Part shown: in pieces, positions 1,436 through 55,339 of the stretch
Position numbering within the stretch: position 1 is the stretch's first letter
Layout of the letters: every line of letters begins with the position of its first letter
Assembly (NCBI RefSeq): GCF_037975245.1
Contig: NC_092579.1
Coordinates: 7,711,001-7,775,000 of the forward strand
DNA from: Apostichopus japonicus
Taxonomy: Eukaryota; Echinodermata; Holothuroidea; Aspidochirotida; Stichopodidae
Length of the DNA stretch: 64,000 nt
Direction of reading: 5' to 3'
Made by a program: the position numbers and the translations under genes
Notes under the pieces: model-generated
What the model saw: the letters and a program-made list of their open reading frames with translations, nothing else
The model's database searches: none
Told to the model about the DNA's origin: nothing

Positions 1436-2579
1436 TTCATGGAAAGAACCTCCATGAAACCTCCCTACAGGGTACAGCTTAGGTCTACATCATCAAGGCA
1501 GTACTTTTCTTCAGAGGTTTTCTGATTGCAACTGGTTGATAACTAAAGGGGTCATCAGCAGTACTGTGGTACTGCAAGCAGTACTGCGAGTGCTGCTGTA
1601 TTGCAGGCGCTAACAAGGTCATCATACAGGCCACTGTCCTTGACTTCTTTAGCAGCTTATACAGAGAAACCACTTTCCTGCACCACAGTGGCGTCAGCAG
1701 GGCAAAGGATCGGCCCCAACACCCTATTTGCAAAGATAACCAGGTTTCATGTACTTCCGCCTCGCTCTCAGGACTGTGGGGTCGGGGCTCTCTGGAGTCT
1801 TCCCAAGCCCAAGTACAGGGCACTTTGATCACCATCCTCTCAGACAACACGATGGTGGTGGCATACTGTACAGTAGCTACATCAATAGACAGGGTGGCAC
1901 CAGGGCAGAGGGACTGTGCCGTCTGGCATGGGAGACCCTCACCACAGCTGCAGAATCTGGCACGGCCCTATGGGTCTCCCATATAGCCAGAAAGGAGAGT
2001 GTGAGGGCCGATGCTCTGCCCAGGGGACAACTCGACCCCGACGAGTGAACCCTTCGCAAGGAATATGCGGTAGGTTTTTCCACATGTTCGGCATACCTCT
2101 GATAGACCTGCTTACGACAAAGGGCAACAATGGGCTGCCCATCTTTTGTAACAGGCGGTCCCACCTGCAGCCTTCCACATAGCACCAGGTCCCTGCCGTG
2201 AGATGGACCAGAGGTTTAAATTCTTCCCCCCCTTTGGCATGATCAGCCAGATACTGAGGAAGATTCGCAGCTCCAAGGGTAAATTCATCCTAGTGGCTCC
2301 CTCCGGACCCCGGGTCCCAGGCCGCAGGTCCCACACGCAGGCCCCAGACGGGGACGTCTGGTTTTCCAGACGGCTCCACGCTGGGCATTAGCCCAGACAT
2401 TGACCAGCTCACCAAAGGCATGGCTAATCGCCGTCCACGAGTCAGACAGTTAGCCCCCTCTGCGGGGCTCTCAGCAGTGCTGCATGCCCTGGCAGGGCCG
2501 CTGTACGAATCAACGGGGAACGCTTCCCTGGCTGCTCTTTCAAAGAAAACACTCTTCGTCATTGCGGTAGCGTCAGCGT

Positions 2580-3098
2580 GAAGGAGTTACCTCCAAGCCC
2601 TAACAACCAAACAGAACCACATCAGATTTGAGGGCCATGGGGCGAGGACGGTTCCAGACCCGTCCCTTATTGCCAAGAACCGGGCCTTGACTTTCTTGCC
2701 CGGGGACATTTTCTTTCCGGAAATCAAAACCCTTTCATCAGTGGCTGAGGACAAGCGATGGTGCCCAGTCAGGGCACTGAAGTGGTACTTAAACAGGACA
2801 GAGAAGTTGAGACAAACAACCTCCCTTTTCATCCTGCCACGACCACCTTAAACAGCAGCCGCCAAGGATACCCTATCCCGATGGCTAGTAGAGATGATCC
2901 ACCCGTTCACGATGGGGGGATACCCGGCCAAGAGATCACAACATCAGTGGGGCCTCGGCTTCCACAGCTCTCTCTGCCGGTATCCCGATACAGGACATCC
3001 TCAAGGTGGCAGCGTGGAAAACACCAACTACGTTCGTCGCCTGTTACTTACCTGACACTCTAGACGCCGAGGCAGCTCTTGGTAGCTCGGCGATGTGA
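2580..3098 (+). pseudogene. Tyrosine recombinase (YR) domain of the DIRS relic
   Basis: Reading across several frames, this segment shows ALTTKQNHIRFEGHG, then CPVRALKWYLNRTEKLR, a short shifted region, and an open C-terminus containing AGIPIQDILKVAAWKTPTTF and ending at the TGA at 3096-3098. These match the phage-integrase-like recombinase of DIRS retroelements, which replaces the DDE integrase and joins a circular DNA copy to the genome. At least two frameshifts separate the pieces, so this copy cannot make an enzyme. The last stretch (about 2970-3098) is the best preserved. Confidence 0.65.
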
Positions 3099-3156
3099 GG
3101 TCCGGTTGGTACTTGGTCCCACCCCTCGGGCCTCCCACCATCGGGCAGTGCCACTC

Positions 3157-3255
3157 GGTGCTAAGGTTGTGAGGAGACAGGTAAGCGAGGAGCGAAGTAA
3201 ATATTCCAAAACTTACTGGTTTGGATATTTACGAGTGACGAGCTTACCTGTCTCC
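3157..3255. repeat. Long imperfect palindrome inside the DIRS 3' end
   Basis: Arms GGAGACAGGTAAGC (3173-3186) and GCTTACCTGTCTCC (3242-3255) are exact inverted copies. The intervening 55 bp is itself nearly palindromic around GTAAATATTCCAAA and TTTGGATATTTAC. The 30 bp at 3157-3186 recur as a direct repeat at 3808-3837. Confidence 0.85.
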
Positions 3256-3807
3256 ATTCCCGCCTCCCTCCCCCGAGGGGGTGGGACACAGCCGGACGGG
3301 GGAGCAGTCGTTCGACTAGGCTCACGACTCCAAGCACAACACCAGATAGACAGAGCCAACAACTACTAAGAGTCACCGGCCAGGTCTATCGGTGAGGGTA
3401 ACTTTGCACCCTGTGTTTTTCATATGCGTACTCACCTAAGTTGTCTTAGGGTTAGCAAGTGTTGGGCCTTTACAGGATGAGGCTCCTTGTTAGGAAAAAG
3501 GGGTAGTTTCGCCTGCAGGGCTCAGGAGAGTGTCCCCCCTCCTTACCCGCTGCGGCGGGGAGGATTACACTCTCCCTGCTAGGAAGGCATCAGTGCCTTT
3601 TGTCAAGGGCTCACCTTTGAGAAGTTTAGTCGACGGGAGTCCTTGGGGGGTGGCCAGAGGATTCTGGCCACCCCTATTTCGGTGACCGTGAGGCCACTTT
3701 TAAGGAGTGGTCTCATGAGTAGTGAGGAGTGACCGAGGGGGGGGTTCGGTCATAGAGGGCGCACAGTGTTATTATTTTACCAGGACTTTATAGGCACGGT
3801 AGAATGA

Positions 3808-20500: not shown

Positions 20501-23500
20501 AGTGGGACTGAAATCTTTCCCGGACTGAATTCGGTCCACAGCTGGCCGCCTAATGAGAACCCTGACCTTGAGTTTATAGCTTAATTCTAGCTATATATTC
20601 TAGCTACCTTGAGTTTATAGCTTCTAGCTAAAGTGAAGGTATCCATAGTTCAGGGTTTTCACCAACATTGTGAAAGAAAATATTTAATATGGTGGGGAAC
20701 CTAATCTCCAACACTACCTAATATCCATAACGATAGTTGCCTTGCTGGAAGGATGAGCAAATTGTCAACCACTTAACAGACTTACCCCCTCAGTCACCTA
20801 ACTCCAGATTCTAGAATCTAATAAAGAAACATCAATTTTATAGTTTCAAGTTTTTCTAGGACATGTGGCAAGCCCCTTTAAATTGGAGTTTACTGTTCTG
20901 TGGACTTGGAAATACTTTCAGTGGTATTTTCACTAATGATGGGTAGAGAGCTATATGAACTTCAAAGAAGACATGTTTGTATTTTTAGTACATCCTCGTA
21001 CATTTCAATGTTCTGAGTGAGGTAATAAATGGTACATACTCTTAAATGTCACACCATGTAGCATTAACAGGCTATGCGATACCTCATCCTACCTCATGTG
21101 TTCCTTGAGCTGACGTTTCTGTTGCTTTATAAAGTGCGTGTGTTCTTTCAGTCCATCCTCAAACATCTTCTTGTAGCTCTCATCCAAATAACGAACAGAC
21201 TGGAATGAATCGTGTATGACATCTTGGTAAGTCTGCGAATCTGATGTAATTTATCCAGTCAAGGATTTCATCATTTGAGCAGAGAGAGAGAGAGGATCAA
21301 CCAGAGTAGAAGAAATATATATATCGTAAAAGTTTTCCTGATAAAATACGAGTATTACATTTTACAATGATTGTATATAAACATCAGATCTGCCTGCAGT
21401 TGTATTCAAGTTTCAACAAAACTTGAAACAAATGTTTTCATGATCACTGAGCATTTTAAATTTTTGACCTGCATGACAGACACTGGGTAGTGATGCAAAA
21501 TGAAACAGAAAATAGACCACAAGACAGTGCCTCGTAGTTAGTTTTCCATTTGAAAAAACAATGCCCCCTCCCACACACCCCCTCCCAAAAAAAAAAAAGA
21601 AAAAAAAAGAAAAAAAAAAAAAGGAAACTGGTGTTATTCTTCAGTTTAAGGAAAATATCCTTTGTAATTAGTTGCAATATAAAAGTCTGCTGTAAAAACC
21701 AAAAGTTAATTTCCAAAAACAGAAAAAAAAAACCCATAAAAAAAGAACAAAAATGAACAACTAAAGAAATGAACACACGAAGAATGATTGAACTAACTAT
21801 AGAATGAAGGAACGGATAAATAAATAGTGCAAAGGATATGGTGGCAGCTGATCAATTTCTGTTCTTTGTAAAAGTATCTCTGTTCCAGCTCTTTTTTGTA
21901 ATCCTTGCCTCTGCAGAAAGTGCTTGACCAATGGGCTCTGACCACTGCTGTTGAAAATACACTTAGCAAAGGTTGGCCCTTCTGAGACTGGGTGAGACTG
22001 TAAGCAGATTTGATGAAATATAGAAACAAAGAAGGAAAGGAAAAATACAGAAATGTAAAAATGTATTGTAGTTTCGATGATGGAAACTAGGTGCATCATG
22101 AAGGAATCAGACATCTTATAGGTTCCCTACTTGAGATAGTCATGTTTACAAGGATTTCAGACTTTCACCTCTGATGATCTCCACTAAAGAAACACTAGGG
22201 TTTAAATATTCAAAATGCAAAAAATGTGACTTCATCCAATGTTCCATTCTTGAGATACACAGGTCTACGTAGCTTTCACATTTTCAATTAATTGAAAGGT
22301 AACTGAAAGGTCTTTCACTTCCACCATAAATAATAGGTTTCTTGAACTCAAATGGAGGCATTTCAATTAAAATTAGATAAAATGTTTACAAGGGAAGGAT
22401 CACAGATGCACATATACATCCACACATATACATCCACACATAGACATCCGCATATAGACATCCGCACACAGTCATCCACACATAGACATCATAGCCAAAG
22501 ACATCCACACAAAGACATCCACACATACACACCCACACATAGACATCCACACATACACACCCACACCTAGACATCCACACATAGACATCCACACATACAC
22601 ACCCACACCTAGACATCCACACATAGACATCCACACATAGACATCCACACATAGACATCCACACATAGACACCCACACCTAGACATCCACACATACACAT
22701 CCACACATAGACATCCACACATAGACATCCACACATAGACATCCACACATAGACATCCACACATAGACACCCACACCTAGACATCCACATATACACATCC
22801 ACACATAGACATCCACACATAGACATCCACACATAGACATCCACACATAGACATCCACACATAGACATCCACACATAGACATCCACACATAGACATCCAC
22901 ACATAGACATCCACACATAGACATCCACACATAGACATCCACACATAGACATCCACACATAGACACCCACACCTAGACATCCACACATACACATCCACAC
23001 ATAGACATCCACACATAGACATCCACACATAGACATCCACACATAGACATCCACACATAGACACCCACACCTAGACATCCACACATACACATCCACACAT
23101 AGACATCCACACATAGACATCCACACATAGACATCCACACATAGACATCCACACATAGACACCCACACCTAGACATCCACACATACACATCCACACATAG
23201 ACATCCACACATACACATCCACACATAGACATCCACACATACACATCCACACATAGACATCCACACATTGACATCCACACATAGACATCCACACATATAC
23301 ACCTAGACATCCACACATAGACATCCACACATAGACATCCACACATAGACATCCACACATTGACATCCACACATACACATCCACACAAAGACATCCACAC
23401 ATAGACATCATAGCCAAAGACAGTGTACCTTAAAGCAGTCCAATGCATCTGTAGCATAATTACTCTCATCATCGAATGGGTTTGAAACAAAAGTATTTTA

Positions 23501-45158: not shown

Positions 45159-48100
45159 TTAAACAACTTGATCTTTCTTTCCATATTGCTTGTGAATGAA
45201 ACAACCAATAACGACAATACACACTAAGCCACATATCACTGAGATCGTTGCTATTAATGCAACTATCAGACCACTGCTAGAGTTTTTGACACATGTTGGT
45301 AGGATTTCCGACCAAGATGTACTAGCAAGGCATGTAAGACTAGGTTGCCCCATCAGAGTAAACCCATTATTACAAGTAATGCTTATACTAAAACCAACGT
45401 CATACACATTTCCTTCGATAACACCATTTTCAACTGAACCAGGGGAACCACAACTCATGGCAACACACTTTGGTAGTTGTTGAGACCAGGTGCCATTAGA
45501 GTGACAAGTTACTTCACGATTTCCTTCTATATAGAAACCCCCATTGCAGGAGGCAACTACTGTGTAGCCCACAAGAAAAACACTACCGTTAATTCCCCCA
45601 TTCTCAATCTTCCCTGGATGACCACAACTGACAATTTTGACCAACTTCTCTTTAACTTCGTTGAATGATTTGATATCTCGAAGCGATGCATTCGCAAACG
45701 CGATGCTGTTTGTAGTGACAGCATCATACAAACACGTTACCGAGTCACCACAAATGAGTTTGACTTCCTCGCTGACGGAGTCAACATCCGGAAATGCCAG
45801 ATTAGGAAGAAATTCTGGATTAAAGAAGGTCGAGAAGTCAGATGGAGGTAAATAAGTGAATTTAGAAGTGTTTGTGTCAAGGATCCATTCAAGTCCAAAG
45901 TCAAAATGGGTTGCTTCCAATGTTGAGTTAGGCCGCAGTGAAGACCCGTTTGGTAAAATAAAGTCATCATCTGCGAGGTCATTAAAATTGCCTAGTAGTC
46001 CCTCTGTCTGTCCCTTAAAACCATCCGGTAATTGTAAAATAAATGACATCATTTCTGTGGTGATCCTAATCAATGCTGTTGCTCCAATATGAAGGCGTAT
46101 TGTGATTTCAGACACGTCAGGGTTAACTGTTAACCTCAGTCCACGGAAGTCTTGCTTTCGGATCAGATATCCATCGAAATATAGATCAACTTGTTCACCG
46201 TTCAAGAGAATGAGTGTCCCATTTAAAGGTGACCTTTGAACTTGAATTGTATCAGACATGTCAGAAGAAAGTACAAAGGCTGTGTAGACGCTTGCATCAG
46301 TACCAGCTAAAACCTCCATTCTGGCTTGAAATGTAAAGTTATGTAAAGAAGATTTGACCAAAACAAATTCACCGGCACCATTAAAAGTGAATTCTTTCCC
46401 GTCCAGACTGATGAAATGAGGATCTCCTGTGCCAATAGTTGGTCGTGGTGGCTGATAACCCGAACAATCATCTGATGGACGAAATTCATAGTAAGTTTCA
46501 CACTGACTTATCAATTTGCAGCAGGCTAGAAATGGAAGGACATCGAACCAAAAATGCTTTACGGTGCCGCAAAAGCCTCCAGGAGCAAAAGCATCAACCG
46601 TCCCACCTCCGGGAGGTCCAACGAGTATATTACCATCGGATCCATAACAGCACTGTTGTCCACTTCCTCCTGATCCTGAACGGTAACACGACGAGGCACC
46701 CGGGTGGAAATATCCAAGAGATGGATTTGCGTCAGTTTCAAAGTTTCCATCAGCTGCTGCCTGTTGATCGGTGCACGGACATGCTGGTAGATCGCCAACG
46801 CTAGCAGATTGCAACCAAGACGAGCAGATTGATCTACCAATCATTTTCAAAATAGCGCTGGATAGCACTTGAAACAAAGACTTTCCATTTGCTTTCAAGG
46901 TAATCACTGACAACGATAAACCAAACGAACTTAGTCCATTCAAACTTTCCGTTGGTATTTCCGATGGCATGAAACGAAATGTACCTACGTTTTCAACACT
47001 GCTTGCAATTTTAATATCGTTTGACCAAACAAATCCCTCATCTTGATCAAGTTCTCTACTGGCGACTTGAATTGAAATATCGATATATTCCACTGCAAAC
47101 AGTTTGGTTGGATCCCACTCAAGGATAATTTCTTTTTCTTTTGTAAAATCAATGTTACCTTCAATTTCATCTGATTGCAACACATTGAGTGTAGCAGGAA
47201 GGACATCTTGGGGAAGAATGTAAACATTTCCCCTGAAAGGAAAAGTTTCTTTGCCGTCAACGGTTACGTCCACAGTAACATACGATAGTTGTTGAAACCG
47301 CGGAGTAGTGCAGAAAATGGTGTAAACATCAAAAACATGACCAGGGACGTCAATCACTTTGTTATCTTGATTGAATCGACAAAACACATTTTCAGTATGT
47401 ACTTCATTACTTTCAAGACATGGAAGCGTGACAGTGAGTTGTTCTCCGCCAACCTCTCGCAAAAAGAAGGGTTCGATGTTTAGGAGGCGTTCGTCATTTG
47501 GAAGGAAGAGTCCAGCTGAATAGCCATACGTCTCGTCACGTTCATATCCATAAACAATTACAGAAAATGGGGACGCATCGATGTACGAGCTTTGTTCTAC
47601 GAAGAAGACCCCTTCTCCCTTTGGAACCTCTACCGTATATACATCATATGGTGTACCGGCTATGCTATGATGGCTATGACTGCTATCTTGTAAAATAGGT
47701 TCACCGTTCACAAGAATGGTCTCCGACTCATTTGATTTGACTATAATGTTGAGAAAATTAAAGAATCCTTCACTGTCTCCGCCAGATTTTGGAGGAGTAG
47801 AAAATCCAAAGATGTAGCTGAATTGTTCTTCAGAGGGAACCTGAATTATAGAAGGGTCAACAATGTTTTGGTTAATTGTTCTTAAAAGCTGCAAGACAGA
47901 AATGGGCTGATTTGAGGTGATGACCCCACTCCCTTGAAGCTCGCCTTGCCAAAATTCTCCGAGTTGCAATGTCACCGGTTCGATACCTGGAATGGTTACT
48001 TCTGAATTTTCGTAATAGGTGTGAATTACATACACTGATCGGTCATCAGCGGATCCTGTGGCCGTGTAAATATATGAACTGCTCCAGCTTTCTACTGGTA

Positions 48101-48899
48101 CCAACTGCTCCGAAAGCGTATCGCAAAAAGAACCCGGCGTTGATGCACATAAGCGACCCGTAAAAAAGGCAACTGGCTTGTTGGTTTCAATAACACTGCC
48201 CCCAATATATCCGGCGTTAGTATCGCTTACTAGTTGTACCACTTCATGTCTGTGAATCGTCAGTTGAATCGTATCGCCACTCAGGTAAGAGGTGCCATCG
48301 ATAGTGACTCCTGCGGTAAGGACGATCCTTACGGCAGTTTCATCCTCCACGCCTACAATAGCAAAGAGACTCGGCAGGTTATTGCTTCTATCATAGCTCA
48401 TTGCTACGTAAGATAGTCCAAGATTGTTCACTGGAATAGCCAAGAAAGCATCAGTTGTAAAAGGCGCGTAGTTAAGACCGTAAACAGATACATCGCTGGT
48501 TGCAATCACTTCAATGACCTTGTCACTATGTTCTGAGGTTGTACCTAGTAGTAATTCGGTCGGAACATTGATTCGCTTCGAGCTTCTCGCATCCAGAACA
48601 AACGTTGTTAGGTACGGCCCATCAATGCCAGAATACTTGCTGCTTATCGTGACTGATGTTGATTGATCGCTAAATGCAACAACGATCAATGAGAGTTCAG
48701 TCGTTAAGAGGTTAGAAAATTGATTGCCCGTAAATGCTATCACAAAATTACGCCCTCGGGTAATACCCGAACAAGTGTCTGCGTTCCCATCTACTCGAAA
48801 TAGTAAAGAAACCAAGACGTAGAGAGTAACCACAAACCTGCACGCCATTCCTATTGGTAGAGAATGTATAAACATGATTAGCCATCCTTTCTGAAACAT
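45159..48899 (-). CDS. IgGFc-binding / AMOP / VWD / Sushi single-pass membrane protein (SUSD2-like)
   Basis: One uninterrupted exon encodes 1,246 residues. A signal peptide follows Met18 (MACRFVVTLYVLVSLLF), which may be the true start (48848). Domains in order: IgGFc-binding N-terminal region (about 50-465); IPT/TIG-like (about 473-565, NIEPFFLREVGGEQL); Cys-rich AMOP-like block (about 690-805, ICSSWLQSAS...ACPCTDQQAA...CCYGSDGNIL); VWD (about 820-990, IGTGDPHFISLDGKEFTFNG and GLLGNFND); two Sushi/CCP domains (1092-1145, 1150-1203, each with four Cys and a Trp); a membrane helix (1209-1233); and a 13-residue tail ending KKDQVV. The IPT-AMOP-VWD-Sushi-TM order is that of SUSD2 and, in part, MUC4. 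The IgGFc-binding front is typical of echinoderm adhesion/mucus proteins. A role in cell adhesion or surface defence is inference. Several N-glycosylation sequons are visible. Confidence 0.9.
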   Translation of the reverse strand: MFQKGWLIMFIHSLPIGMACRFVVTLYVLVSLLFRVDGNADTCSGITRGRNFVIAFTGNQFSNLLTTELSLIVVAFSDQSTSVTISSKYSGIDGPYLTTFVLDARSSKRINVPTELLLGTTSEHSDKVIEVIATSDVSVYGLNYAPFTTDAFLAIPVNNLGLSYVAMSYDRSNNLPSLFAIVGVEDETAVRIVLTAGVTIDGTSYLSGDTIQLTIHRHEVVQLVSDTNAGYIGGSVIETNKPVAFFTGRLCASTPGSFCDTLSEQLVPVESWSSSYIYTATGSADDRSVYVIHTYYENSEVTIPGIEPVTLQLGEFWQGELQGSGVITSNQPISVLQLLRTINQNIVDPSIIQVPSEEQFSYIFGFSTPPKSGGDSEGFFNFLNIIVKSNESETILVNGEPILQDSSHSHHSIAGTPYDVYTVEVPKGEGVFFVEQSSYIDASPFSVIVYGYERDETYGYSAGLFLPNDERLLNIEPFFLREVGGEQLTVTLPCLESNEVHTENVFCRFNQDNKVIDVPGHVFDVYTIFCTTPRFQQLSYVTVDVTVDGKETFPFRGNVYILPQDVLPATLNVLQSDEIEGNIDFTKEKEIILEWDPTKLFAVEYIDISIQVASRELDQDEGFVWSNDIKIASSVENVGTFRFMPSEIPTESLNGLSSFGLSLSVITLKANGKSLFQVLSSAILKMIGRSICSSWLQSASVGDLPACPCTDQQAAADGNFETDANPSLGYFHPGASSCYRSGSGGSGQQCCYGSDGNILVGPPGGGTVDAFAPGGFCGTVKHFWFDVLPFLACCKLISQCETYYEFRPSDDCSGYQPPRPTIGTGDPHFISLDGKEFTFNGAGEFVLVKSSLHNFTFQARMEVLAGTDASVYTAFVLSSDMSDTIQVQRSPLNGTLILLNGEQVDLYFDGYLIRKQDFRGLRLTVNPDVSEITIRLHIGATALIRITTEMMSFILQLPDGFKGQTEGLLGNFNDLADDDFILPNGSSLRPNSTLEATHFDFGLEWILDTNTSKFTYLPPSDFSTFFNPEFLPNLAFPDVDSVSEEVKLICGDSVTCLYDAVTTNSIAFANASLRDIKSFNEVKEKLVKIVSCGHPGKIENGGINGSVFLVGYTVVASCNGGFYIEGNREVTCHSNGTWSQQLPKCVAMSCGSPGSVENGVIEGNVYDVGFSISITCNNGFTLMGQPSLTCLASTSWSEILPTCVKNSSSGLIVALIATISVICGLVCIVVIGCFIHKQYGKKDQVV

Positions 48900-49341: not shown

Positions 49342-49460
<119 letters not shown>

Positions 49461-50304
49461 TGGTAAATGGTGGAAATCGAGGTAATTCGTCCGTTTACAC
49501 ACCTTCCAATCGAGGTATCACCGACAATCGAGGAATACCTCGATTAGAAAAGTACTGGCGTGGCGCTATTTGTGATCCTTTAAATGCTAGGAAAGTGATT
49601 TTGGTTCAATTTGAAGTAGTACCTCGTTTGGCATCATGCCACCTTGTTTATATACATCTTTGTGTATACATGACTACGGCGCGATTTCACACAAAAATGT
49701 CAGTACCTCGATTACACGATGGACTGACGGCTGCGAGTCACTACATCGAATGGCAGGATCCCGCATGATTTCCTCGGTTTTGCGGTGGAAAACTGTCCCG
49801 TCGCAATACGGTGGTAAATATAAAATCACTTTTTTATTTAGTCAAAAATGTAATATGATCCTAATGTACCCGCTTGAATTCACTAATCGAAAAGCCATAG
49901 GGCCTAAGACTAGAGTTATGATTCGTGTTGACCATAGTCTAGGACTAAATGCCTAGGCCTATATATGTTGCTAGGCTATATATTTTAACAGCCATAACAT
50001 AAGGTTAGGCTCTGCAATAACATGCAGTACTATTTTGATAAGAGATAACAAGTGATCTCATCAGTGGTAGCCTATGAACTAATGCATGTGGGCCTAAGTT
50101 TGTATGGTCCTTAAAACCTGTGTTGAAATAATTTAGCCCTTTCATTTTTTTTTTGCGCCTACGAGATTATTGTTAGTTTGTTATTTATGCATTTACTTAA
50201 CTTGCATTTAGGGGAATGCATTCAGCCAAATTTCTTTCTTTCTTTCAATATAACTTAACTTAATTGTTAACATTGTCTCTGTGACATTGTTTTGTTCTTG
50301 ATAG

Positions 50305-52475
50305 ATGGGGCGCAGAAAATAACCTGATTATGCTGTAGCAGCTAGAGAATGGATAAATTCACATAATGAAGACCCACCTGGCTTTTACATTAAAGAAGTG
50401 TCACCCACGATTGGTGAGCATTACATGCATACATTTGTTAACCACAATGACATTAATTTAAGAGAATATGTATCTAGTTTGTAATATCTATTGTCCTTTA
50501 ACTGCCTACTGTCTAAACGTTTCTTTTTTATAAGTGTTTGTAGAAAAGTACACTGGGTCTACAATTGTATTACCCAGATAAAGAAGAACTATATGGACAT
50601 AGGTGGAAGATGCATGTTGTATATTTACTTGTTCTACTTACTACAGGTAAAGGGCTGTTTGCAGACAAAAGCTTCTCAAGAGGCGAATTTTTGGTGGAAT
50701 ACAAGGGGAAGTTGGAAGCAGCATCTAACTATGAAAATGTTGATGACCTGACATATGTTTACTATTTTGTTGATGGGAGGAAGGAGTTGTGGTAAGTAGG
50801 TCAAATGTCTTGTAATACCTCTTCTCATTCCACAGCAGCTTCTACTTGAATTGGATATGGTGTGTACTAAGCAGCATAAAAATGTGTTATAGTATCAGGA
50901 CCAAAGTAAATTTCCTTTCATATTATTAAATAAATGTTGTAGTTCTTTGAATAAACTCAGTTTGTGTAGCATTCCCTTCCTCATACCACATCATCTTATC
51001 ACCCAGTGCTGTAGGAATCAAGTCCTTTTGTTGTGGACTAGGACTCAGACCTGGGATGTCTTGCAGTCAGACTTGTCTCGGACTTCAGATCCCCTGGACT
51101 AGGTCTCAAGTCTGAGTCCAGATGTATTCCACATTCTGTATGTCAGTATAGTAGGAGTTAACACATTTGGCCACATAGTGGACCTTCACTAATTGATTGT
51201 ATTATCATAAGTGAAGAACTATGTAAACGATTGTGGTGCCAACTGAAGTTGTAGGTTTCATCAGTAGATGATTGCAAACAAATAATTTGACTTATTATTA
51301 CCAGTGCATTCACAACATTTACTTTCTTTCAGTGTTGATGCAACTTTGAACCATTGCTTAGGTAGATATGTTGGATTAAGAATATTTTTTATCATGAAGC
51401 GATTATGTGTGGCATTGCGAGATCAGGTCTGATATCACTAATCAGTTGGTCATGTACTGATGGCAATGCACATTTCTATTCAGTTTGAACGTTTGGTAAA
51501 ATCTAATTTGATGAAGCTGTATAGAATTGTATTTACAGTGACCAATCTCATAATGACTATGTGTTTTGTGAATTTATAGAAGTTGTAGAGGACCCTGGTG
51601 ATGCTGATAGTAATGATGAATGTTCAGATGCAGATGTTGAGGATAATGCTGCAGCACAGGAACTACAGGCACCAGAAGCAATGCTAGAAGAAACTGGTGA
51701 GTGTTTCTATTTTATACAACACCTAATTATATTCCGGCCATTTGATTGGTCAATTGCTCGTCGATTGCATGCAAAATCCGCTCTATTGCACTCTATGAAA
51801 TAGAACCATGGGTTATACTTTTTTGATAGCACTTTTTTCAATGGTAAGAGAGCAGAGAAACCCGTCTTTCCAAAACAATATGTTGCATGAGTGCATTTTA
51901 CATCCAATTATATCCAAATTTGAAGGTGTTGTATAAAACAAATAATGCATGGTTTCCATTCGTGCAATAGTGCAAATATTTCATTCGTTGAAAGATGTAA
52001 TTTGTTGCATTCAACTCGGCTGCGCCTCGTTGAATGGAACATTCCATCTTTCAACTCATGAAATATTTGCACTATTGCACTCATAACCATTCATTATTTG
52101 TATAACAATGAATGCAGGTAAAGTCAATCTCATAACAAAGCAATATTCACATATATAGTGTAGTAGGAATATGTAGTGGGAATGAAATGTTGTTTAAAGC
52201 AAGGTGATTACTTCCCCTTGTTTCCAATTAATCAAATCATTTACACTTCTGATGGTTAGTATGTTAAAAATATTAATTTTAGAGATATATTTGTGATTAC
52301 AGATGATAATGCATCCAAGGTTCGCAGTACTACAAGCTCTTCAAATGTGCCACAAAAGACTACAAAGAGGAAAGCCTGGAGCACGGATGAAAGGGACGCC
52401 ATAATGAAGCATTTTTCAGGGCTGATCTTACGGAACAAGCTTCCTGGCAAAACTGAGATTGAGATCATTGTGTAG
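50305..52475 (+). pseudogene. Decayed SET-domain (KMT5A-like) gene, five exons
   Basis: Exons by GT-AG and phase: 50305-50413, 50647-50791, 51333 to about 51425, 51580-51696, 52303-52475. Exon 1 opens MGRRK, then an in-frame TAA (50320-50322), then PDYAVAAREWINSHN and DPPGFYIKEVSPTI. Exon 2 is the start of a SET domain (GKGLFADKSFSRGEFLVEYK; VYYFVDGRKEL). Exon 3 gives CVDATLNHCLGRYVG, then the NH..C.P region is deleted and only a relic (RLCVALRD) remains before a stop. The catalytic Tyr and the GEE..YDY end are not found. Exon 4 is acidic. Exon 5 ends with RKAWSTDERDAIMKHFSGLI, a Trp-led helical module, and a stop. SET8/KMT5A enzymes methylate histone H4 Lys20; this copy should be inactive. 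Its location inside inverted repeats suggests mobile spread of the family. Confidence 0.7.
51710..52108. mobile_element. Two adjoining fold-back MITEs in a SET-gene intron
   Basis: TTTTATACAACACCT (51710-51724) is mirrored exactly at 51924-51938. From there a second fold starts: TTGTATAAAACAAATAATG ... GTGCAATAGTGCAAATATTT is mirrored by AAATATTTGCACTATTGCAC ... CATTATTTGTATAACAA (to 52108). The second is a palindrome of about 180 bp with a small spacer. Confidence 0.8.
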
Positions 52476-53169
52476 CGTATAGCATATGTTTGTCAGTTTC
52501 AAGGACTTAAACTTCTTTCTGGATCTATTTTGTGCATTATTCATGCAGGCTCAGTTATAACAGTGTTCATTCCTATTTACTTCACATGTTGTCATTTGTT
52601 ACATAAGTGGTGTATTTTAGCCTTCAAAAATGAAGTATGAAGTATGAAGTTTTTGTATAGATTGTAAAAGTATTAAGGAAGGTATATTTGATTTTGAGGA
52701 AACGTACAAGATTATCAGTAAGTATAAAGGGGCTTCTCAGTGACCAAGACCTGCCCTCCCATGAAATATGTACTTTACTTGTCTGATAAAACAGATTCTT
52801 TTAGTCACAATGTTCTACAAAGTTTGATATAAAGGGCTCCTTTTTCATCACCAAAACATAGCTAAAACTGGCAAGAAGGTATGGAACAGACTTGAAGAAG
52901 AAATGTTAGTGTTTATTCTAACCTACCTCTCATCACTTAATCTACTCTTTAATTAGTCTCCTTTTTATATTTTAACACGTTATACCACTTGTTTTATTGT
53001 TCATTTTAGAGAAAACATGTTTGTGTTGGAGTCACCTTTATGTTCGATCTTCTTTCTTGTCTATCGTAGTAAACACTAAAGCAAACTTCAAGGTTCAGTG
53101 GAGTACAACCAATACTTGTCTGTCCCTCCCAAACATAATATATGGCAATACAATGTTTCATGGTATAAG

Positions 53170-54910
53170 AAATGCCCTGATTCCTCGATTTGATGTTATG
53201 ATAGGCTCGATAGCTAGTCAAGTGTATATGCTATTCAATAGTCAGTACTTCCTTGGATGGTATATGGACTTCTGAAGTTTCATCAATGAAAAATATTCCA
53301 TGTTTCGGTTGTATTAGGAGTACATTGATTACTATATTCATGAACCCAAATGAAGAGTTTTTCTCGATTGTCGGGTGAATTTCTCAAGTTTACACACTGT
53401 TTAAATTATGACAGATACATATAGGTTAGCCGAAATAGTGTAAGCATTGAGTCGCATGTATATGGGTATATCTATTATATCATCCATTCGTGTATGCACC
53501 TCTGAACACAAATTGCTGTCCGACAAATTAGTCCCATGTCCGTTGACATAAGAAATACTCCTCGATGTGGCATTGTGACCTCTATTCAAACGCACAGCAT
53601 TGCCTCGATTGGTATGTGTACTTCTGAAGTTTACACATTTATGTTTACGTTAGATATGACAGAGGCATCATCAACTTGCCATCAGAGTGTAAAAGCCTAC
53701 CTTGACGTTCATTCGGTTGATTCTCAATATGCAGTTATATCGCGCCAATATAACACAATTATTGCCATAGAAGATATGCACTGATTCCTCGTTTTGATAT
53801 TATGACCGCTAATCGAGTGTATACTTTGACGTATAATCAGCATTACCTCGATTGGCATGTGGACTTCCGAAATAAACATTTAACATTTCTAGGTTATATC
53901 AGTAGCGTATTAATTGCTCGATTTGATAACATGACGGCTAATGAAATGCTTCGTTACTGTGTAGAAGAAATGCACTGATTCCTCGTTTTGATATTATGAC
54001 CGCTAATCGAGTGTATACTTTGACGTATAATCAGCATTACCTCGATTGGCATGTGGACTTCCGAAATAAACATTTAACATTTCTCGGTTATATCAGTAGC
54101 GTATTAATTGCTCGATTTGATATCATGACGGCTAATGAAATGCTTCGTTACTGTGTAGAAGAAATGCACTTATTCCTCGATTTGATATTATGACCGCTAA
54201 TCGAGTGTATACTTTGACGTATAATCAGCATTACCTCGATTGGCATGTGGACTTATGAATAAACATTTAACATTTCTCGGCCACATAGTAAATTAACTGC
54301 TCGATTTGATATCATATCAGTACTTGCGAACTTCTGAAGTATATACATGACTTTTTGACATCACGGATCAAATATTCTTAAGTTGTGTAATAACACAACA
54401 TAACCCAACCGTCGCTTACGTAAAAAATAAATCGATCCTGAAAACTCGTTATTCAGAGTTGTCTCAATTGGTGTGCGGAATTCTGACTGGTCATCCATGA
54501 ACAATATCCTTTATACAGGAAATGTGCACGATTCAGTAACCCCGATTGATATGTAGACTTCTAAAGTAACAATCTACAGCGGTTCCTCGATTTGGTAGTG
54601 AAATGGACAACCTAGTGTAACAATGTGTATCTTAGTATTTCCTCTATTGATATGTAGACTTATTATGAGGAGTAAATTACCTCGTTTTCCCGATTCTGGC
54701 TTCACGATAGGTGTGTATGTGTGTTAAATCATTACCTCGTTTTGTATGTACACATCTCATTGCCAAGATAAGTTCCAACGATCAACTTCGGCACATATGA
54801 TGCTCTCACAGGTAACCTACTACTACCACTCAAAAGGGTGGACCTCTCTGAAGGTTTTCTAGGGTTTCCTCGTTTGTAAGGTTCAGTACGGACTACCTCG
54901 TTTGCCACCA
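53170..54910. repeat. Right subterminal repeat array of the SET-gene element
   Basis: TACCTCGATTGGCATGTGGA and TTCCTCGATTTGATATTATG words recur many times. A 194-bp unit is tandem at 53781, 53975 and 54169 with very high identity; outer copies are diverged. Related words occur at 49476-49775. Confidence 0.9.
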
Positions 54911-55339
54911 AGCACACGTATGTGTGCGTGTGTGTGTGTATGTGTACATGTATGATATGATATTAATCATATATGTACTACGACAGTCTCATAATACCTG
55001 AGATGTTTTTACATGTTCTTCAATTATATTAAAAAAAAATCAAACACTACAGGCGTTACACAATAATGCTAAAGCCTATACTGCAGCCCTATCGTTAAGC
55101 TTGACTTAAGGCAAGCTAAGTAACAAATATATTCATGAACAGAACAGGATATCCTGAAAGGGTCCACACATAATGATTGCCTGACCGCGCGACCCCACTC
55201 ACCCATAAGCTAAATTCGGCCCTGGTGATAGAATTCAGCTTTCTACTTCTAAGATACAAAATATCGTTCAGTTTTTCGTTCTTTTAGAGACTGTCCTTAA
55301 AAAGCATTTCTTAATTGGGCTGCGTTCAACTTAGAATAA

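What the first reader, a model, noticed from the sequence alone, without database searches (positions are those of the whole stretch)
49468..54910. SET-domain gene carried between terminal inverted repeats
A 5.4-kb segment starts and ends with inverted repeats that match in two blocks over about 55 bp. It has many subterminal CGAGGTA-type repeats on both sides and touches GT microsatellite at both ends. The only gene-like content is a multi-exon KMT5A-like SET gene. SET genes are not standard cargo of DNA transposons, and no transposase is visible. It may be a non-autonomous member of an undescribed element family, or a family in which the SET protein helps control chromatin at the insertion. 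Caution: the repeated motif raises chance matches, but the TGGTGG and ACCTT flanks lie outside it.
Basis: partly seen in the sequence, partly recalled or inferred. Interest (0 to 1): 0.9.

Follow-up and report, generated by a model that had tools for sequence, protein, structure and literature searches.

The report
SET-domain tyrosine-recombinase transposon, deleted copy
The segment is a shortened copy of a sea cucumber jumping element whose own DNA-moving enzyme, a tyrosine recombinase, appears to be fused to a histone-methyltransferase-like SET domain and which lands at TG repeats; such a fusion could let an element alter the chromatin around itself.

Summary
The window is from a sea cucumber genome (Apostichopus japonicus or very close). 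The 5.47-kb segment (49456-54922) has real inverted ends; three copies elsewhere in the genome share both ends (92-99% identity over aligned parts) but are 9.8-10.9 kb long. The window copy is an internal-deletion derivative. SET is not separate cargo: in copy A the SET exons lie just upstream of one long exon holding a linker, a zinc-finger-like segment and a tyrosine recombinase (YR), and the window's last two 'SET gene' exons are the YR gene's 3' end. Splicing is inferred. The YR call rests on a confident model (pLDDT 90.7) matching XerH and Cre, and on conserved R, K, R, H and Y. SET exons lie upstream of YR in 7 of 10 families sampled; SET-YR fusion proteins occur in two fishes. Motif sites stand at fixed distances from the tips in the four families compared at each end. 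Insertions sit at TG runs, as reported for some CryptonV elements. Best reading: a Crypton-like transposon with a chromatin-modifier-like domain in its recombinase. No empty site was seen, and whether Repbase already describes the fusion could not be checked.

The parts
49456..54922 (+). whole element, internally deleted copy (5467 bp); TGCGTTGG at the left tip, CACACGTATG at the right tip (the TG at each tip cannot be assigned to element or target)
   Evidence: same two ends in copies A (C7), B and C (C17) of the same genome; A-B homology stops at the ends
49424..49455 (.). left flanking TG run, read as target, outside the element
   Evidence: left flank of copy A is not a TG run; TRF row 49424-49457
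54923..54946 (.). right flanking TG-rich run, read as target (outer border by eye)
49475..49534 (+). left end sites: 9-base motif beginning 20, 53 and 71 nt from the left tip (CGAGG core in this family)
   Evidence: same three offsets in 4 of 4 families compared on the left
54867..54903 (-). right end sites: same motif beginning 20 and 48 nt from the right tip, inverted
   Evidence: same two offsets in 4 of 4 families compared on the right
50305..50413 (+). SET part, exon 1 (starts MGRRK; in-frame stop at codon 6 in this copy); splice border by inspection
   Evidence: tblastn to P0005, 92% over 39 residues
50647..50791 (+). SET part, exon 2 (GKGLFADKSFSRGEFLVEY...); borders by inspection
   Evidence: PF00856 in the joined exons 1-3, 19.6 bits, below its 22.4 cutoff
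51333..51370 (+). SET part, exon 3, cut short by deletion junction 1
   Evidence: homology to copy A breaks at 51370 / A 15088 and resumes at A 19080
51370..51371 (.). deletion junction 1: about 3.99 kb missing relative to copy A (rest of SET, linker, zinc finger, the YR catalytic domain)
51580..51696 (+). recombinase gene, penultimate exon (EVVEDPGDADSN...)
   Evidence: 93% over 41 residues to P0002
52303..52464 (+). recombinase gene, last exon (WSTDERDAIMKHF tail), truncated at junction 2
   Evidence: 95% over 58 residues to P0002
52464..52465 (.). deletion junction 2: about 0.67 kb missing relative to copy A
   Evidence: 52464 = A 20109, resumes A 20778
53181..54910 (-). long right subterminal array of CCTCG motifs including a 194-bp tandem repeat (53768-54315)

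Best explanation
This is a deletion derivative of a Crypton-like DNA transposon whose longer form encodes one protein: KMT5A-type SET domain, long low-complexity linker, C2H2-like zinc-finger segment, tyrosine recombinase, and a short C-terminal tail. Shown by sequence: shared ends, gene layout, YR fold and catalytic residues (in relatives), SET similarity, end-site layout, position at TG runs. Inferred: that the exons are spliced into one mRNA; that the recombinase excises the element as a circle by joining the two tips and inserts it at a TG step of a (TG)n run, which leaves TG on both sides and no distinctive target duplication; that the sites 20-71 nt from the tips bind the recombinase or its zinc finger; and that the SET domain methylates histone or another protein at the element or target. 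The window copy could move only if a full copy supplies the protein.
Against: No transcript, empty site, circle or new insertion was seen; genome searches for the ends did not complete. SET lacks the canonical NHS motif (ND or NHG in 7 of 7 aligned). The H of the recombinase HxxR box is T in 64 of 68. Pfam sees PF00589 weakly: of 8 proteins scanned, 1 passes the cutoff, 3 fall just below it and 4 show no match. Foldseek gave 0 PDB rows at E 0.001 or better. SET was not found upstream of YR in 3 of 10 families (F3, F6, F7), 113 of 120 listed relatives show no SET domain (many are single exons), and two oyster proteins have BRCT domains instead. SET and YR identities over 7 elements do not correlate significantly (Mantel r 0.12, 1439 of 5000 permutations reached it), so a single ancient fusion is not proven. 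Copies B and C each have a frame break.
Confidence: 0.85

Rival explanations
1. A DDE-type TIR transposon captured a host KMT5A-like gene as cargo; the recombinase exons are incidental.
For: Inverted ends with many subterminal motif repeats resemble CACTA- or MuDR-like ends (resemblance recalled, not tested); SET genes are reported in HarbingerS and MuDR elements (passage).
Against: In copy A no open frame of 110 codons or more on either strand except the SET-linker-YR exon and one 113-codon frame (shorter exons were not excluded). SET linker and YR share that exon, and SET-YR fusions exist in two fishes. The same end layout occurs in F2 and F4, which carry the same kind of recombinase.
Confidence: 0.05
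2. SET and YR are separate genes that sit side by side in one composite element.
For: In A and the window the SET exons are separate from the YR exon and no transcript was seen; 3 of 10 families show no SET upstream.
Against: SET exon 2 and 3 matches upstream on the same strand in 7 families; single-protein fusions in two fish species; in F9 SET exon 3 and the start of the YR match share one open frame.
Confidence: 0.08
3. The fusion is real but the SET domain is catalytically dead and acts only as a protein- or chromatin-binding module. (This is a sub-case of the best explanation, so its odds overlap with it.)
For: The NHS motif is replaced by ND or NHG in 7 of 7 elements aligned.
Against: The GxG of the SAM site is kept in 6 of 7 and the YxYG tyrosines in 7 of 7 (YDYG in 5).
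Confidence: 0.35

Closest known systems
CryptonV (Crypton DNA transposons with a tyrosine recombinase; Kapitonov and Jurka, Repbase Reports 2012, not seen, cited in PMC8869645)
   Same: DNA transposon with a tyrosine recombinase; some families insert specifically in microsatellites (passage)
Cryptons in general (PMC3212892, abstract and passages)
   Same: YR is the only recombinase found in copy A; no distinctive target duplication seen
   Different: A passage says the original Cryptons have neither TIRs nor long direct repeats; here the tips carry inverted motif sites. The Crypton-derived DUF3504 domain was not listed in my Pfam scans, and HxxR is TxxR
HarbingerS and MuDR elements with SET genes, Phytophthora (PMC12730594, passages)
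   Same: a SET gene inside a DNA transposon
   Different: different transposase class (DDE, recalled); here SET is joined to a tyrosine recombinase, in animals
SETMAR/Metnase (recalled; titles and abstract starts)
   Same: SET domain fused to a transposase-derived part
   Different: a domesticated primate gene with a mariner DDE transposase; here several copies of a mobile family with YR
KMT5A/SETD8
   Same: best PDB match of the SET part
   Different: NHS motif changed; joined to a recombinase; mobile

Membership tests
Tyrosine recombinase superfamily | YR fold | tested here: met
Tyrosine recombinase superfamily | catalytic R, K, R, H, Y | tested here: met
   R215, K260, H360 68/68; R334 67/68; Y369 65/65 non-gap
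Tyrosine recombinase superfamily | H of the HxxR box | tested here: not met
   T in 64 of 68 at that column; read as a variation because the fold and the other residues agree, but it tells against full conformity
Crypton | YR as the element's only recombinase | tested here: met
   Open frames of 110 codons or more in copy A; smaller exons not excluded
Crypton | no terminal inverted repeats | tested here: not met
   inverted motif sites at both tips; so it is not filed as a Crypton, only as Crypton-like
CryptonV | insertion in microsatellites (some families) | tested here: met
   TG runs at tips of W, A, B, C, F2, F3, F4, F10
CryptonV | YR sequence groups with CryptonV | not testable with these tools
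   no Repbase sequences
KMT5A-type SET methyltransferase | closest to KMT5A among solved SET proteins | tested here: met
   P0040: KMT5A 6.4e-24, next different SET protein (4ldg) 9.3e-16
KMT5A-type SET methyltransferase | NHS motif | tested here: not met
   ND or NHG in 7 of 7
KMT5A-type SET methyltransferase | H4K20 methylation | not testable with these tools
   needs assay
HarbingerS | Harbinger DDE transposase | tested here: inconclusive
   none seen among open frames of 110 codons or more in copy A; no search with a Harbinger profile was made

The most novel reading that the evidence does not exclude
A widespread animal lineage of transposons uses a recombinase that is also a histone methyltransferase: it marks chromatin at its own ends or at the TG-run target while recombining, so integration and local chromatin state are set by one protein.
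Probability: 0.3. Interest if true: 0.88.

Novelty: new variant of a known kind. Interest (0 to 1): 0.72.

Why it matters
It shows a transposon recombinase of animals with a chromatin-modifier-like domain built in, in several families of one sea cucumber and in two fishes. It offers a natural system to ask whether mobile elements set chromatin at their own insertion sites, and it may explain some multicopy KMT5A-like genes in animal genomes (the last point is inference).

Tried and rejected
DDE TIR transposon with cargo: disfavoured for the reasons given. Chance origin of the inverted ends: rejected. A host SET locus with TIRs by accident: rejected, since three other loci share both ends. Profile libraries: Pfam, NCBIfam and PHROGs gave no YR call for the first relatives. 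PDB by sequence gave nothing convincing for P0002 (one row, E 0.97). The first structure model was weak (pLDDT 62.2) and was not used. Agreement of SET and YR: the first run held one family in the wrong orientation (r 0.28, 240 of 5000) and was discarded; the corrected run is not significant. The right end of F4 was first misread because its flanks are a shared repeat; corrected. A weak-match look for SET in F3, F6 and F7 printed nothing and may have failed on an option; absence in F6 and F7 rests on the search at E 1e-3 in that call, in F3 also, whose printed output was cut. SET exons further than 7-8 kb upstream would have been missed.

The 68 proteins of the YR alignment were picked by hand from the 120 listed, to thin near-duplicates. 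The end-site motif was written after looking at these ends, and the tips inside TG runs were placed by eye (F2 and F10 by analogy); the spacings between sites (33 and 18 nt left, 28 nt right) do not depend on tip placement.

Literature: listings (20 of 20 shown; 20 of 470; 20 of 812; 25 of 88; 7 of 7; 15 of 31) showed no title on a SET-YR fusion. Passages of PMC9406493 and PMC3537659 and PMC5753468 did not mention one. Six further searches failed. So I cannot say it is unpublished.

Full report
Origin. The window maps to G000:C19:7711001-7775000, an assembly of 671.6 Mb in 35 contigs. The translated exons match four proteins named Apostichopus japonicus at 95-96% over the matched parts, and one unnamed protein at 90%. 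The source is that sea cucumber or a close relative.

Observation. The two ends align as inverted repeats far above chance: score 21, reached by 1 of 3000 same-spacing pairs, 2 of 3000 pairs inside the motif arrays and 0 of 2000 shuffles.

The SET gene is a composite. Exons at 50305-50413, 50647-50791 and 51333-51370 (borders by inspection) encode the start of a KMT5A-like SET domain. The exons at 51580-51696 and 52303-52464 match a different protein, P0002. P0002 carries RKHIATVSQ...GHDIRTHRAYYRLP, which looked like a tyrosine recombinase C-terminus (a recalled lead, tested below).

Other copies. A genome search with P0008, a Holothuria relative, found 103 places; 101 of 176 first-look candidates were scored, so this is a lower bound. 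The three best, at 75-76% identity, were fetched with 30 kb each. All three carry the window's two ends: A 10.26 kb (C7), B 10.94 kb and C 9.77 kb (C17). Identity to the window copy is 92-99% over aligned parts. Relative to A the window copy lacks about 3.99 kb and 0.67 kb. A-B homology stops at the element ends; B and C also share a right flank because both lie in the same dispersed repeat. The long exon of A is open; B has a frame break in the linker and C one in the YR.

One gene. In copy A a single open exon of 1095 codons runs from the SET-side linker through a C2H2-like segment to the end of the YR domain. SET exons 1-3 lie just upstream on the same strand. Splicing was inferred; no transcript was seen. 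Fish proteins P0040 (Festucalex cinctus) and P0069 (Solea senegalensis) hold PF00856 and the YR region in one chain. Of 130 relatives found (7998 candidates scored) 120 were listed: 7 carry PF00856 (two fish species, isoforms included), 2 carry BRCT (Saccostrea), 4 carry PF00589, and 113 show no SET domain. Many listed proteins are single exons, so fusions may be undercounted. Named sources include oysters, starfish, sea urchins, a nemertean, a barnacle, a hemichordate and fishes.

Other families. I sampled upstream DNA of 10 YR families, this one included, out of those seen. SET exon 2 and 3 matches were found in 7 (W/A, F2, F4, F5, F9, F10, F11) and none in 3 (F3, F6, F7) within about 7-8 kb. 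In F9, SET exon 3 lies in an open frame of 973 codons reaching the end of the fetched piece; by position the YR match starts in the same frame, which the search lists as 1263 codons. Among five sea cucumber families with both parts, identities are 29-50% for YR and 33-46% for SET. Over seven elements, two fishes included, the two do not correlate significantly (r 0.12, 1439 of 5000), although the closest pairs F2-F4 and the two fishes agree. Repeated capture or domain exchange is not excluded.

End layout. Left tips of W, F4, F2 and F10, and right tips of W, F2, F3 and F4, carry a nine-base motif at offsets 20, 53, 71 (left) and 20, 48 (right) in 4 of 4 families each. The core differs by family (CGAGG, GCGGA, GGGGA). 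Random quadruples shared no offset in 20000 trials. The motif was written after seeing the ends and the tips were placed by eye in TG runs. F4's tips were compared in two copies; those of F2, F3 and F10 rest on one copy each.

Target. TG runs flank both sides of W, B and C. In A only the right side has a run; the left flank reads ccatttt|TGCGTT. F2 and F4 (both sides), F3 (right) and F10 (left) also meet TG runs, several within one dispersed repeat. The ends of F5, F6, F7, F9 and F11 were not determined. No empty site was seen.

Placement. A passage in PMC8869645 says some CryptonV families insert in microsatellites. A passage in PMC3212892 says the original Cryptons lack terminal inverted repeats (abstract). 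A passage in PMC12730594 says SET genes occur in HarbingerS and MuDR families of Phytophthora. No paper was read whole. I therefore call it a Crypton-like YR transposon, probably near CryptonV, of a SET-fused kind, without claiming membership.

Limits. Copy number of the window family, empty sites and the spread of deleted copies remain open, because genome searches with the ends did not complete. Whether the SET domain is active is unknown. In this revision the HarbingerS row was lowered to inconclusive and several counts were made exact; the odds did not change.

Noticed in passing
window 51962-52080: A 40-nt inverted repeat (93%) with 39 nt between, inside the element; near here the window and copy A differ by about 60-70 bp.
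   Followed up: partly
L013 about 2597-2834 (C17): What looks like a small element of about 200 bp with a similar left tip (TGCGTTTG) and CCGAGGAC motifs lies at a TG run immediately left of copy B.
   Followed up: partly
L016, L020, L027, L028, L036 and right flanks of F3, F4, C: Several families sit in the TG run of one dispersed repeat (GGAACCTATG..TTCA..TTGGC(GT)nGACGCTT.GCTTG).
   Followed up: partly
P0022, P0090 (Saccostrea): The same recombinase with BRCT domains at the N-terminus and no SET domain listed.
   Followed up: partly
window 45159-48899 (-): A 1246-codon open frame with a secreted look (IgGFc-binding and complement-control-like by eye; no search made).
   Followed up: no
window 1485-3369: G+C-rich stretch with retroelement-like open frames (by eye).
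   Followed up: no
window 22409-23409: 14-bp tandem repeat of about 72 copies.
   Followed up: no
G000:C8:7747951-7751346: A 210-bp tandem array of about 16 copies in the left part of the 16.8-kb F4 element.
   Followed up: no
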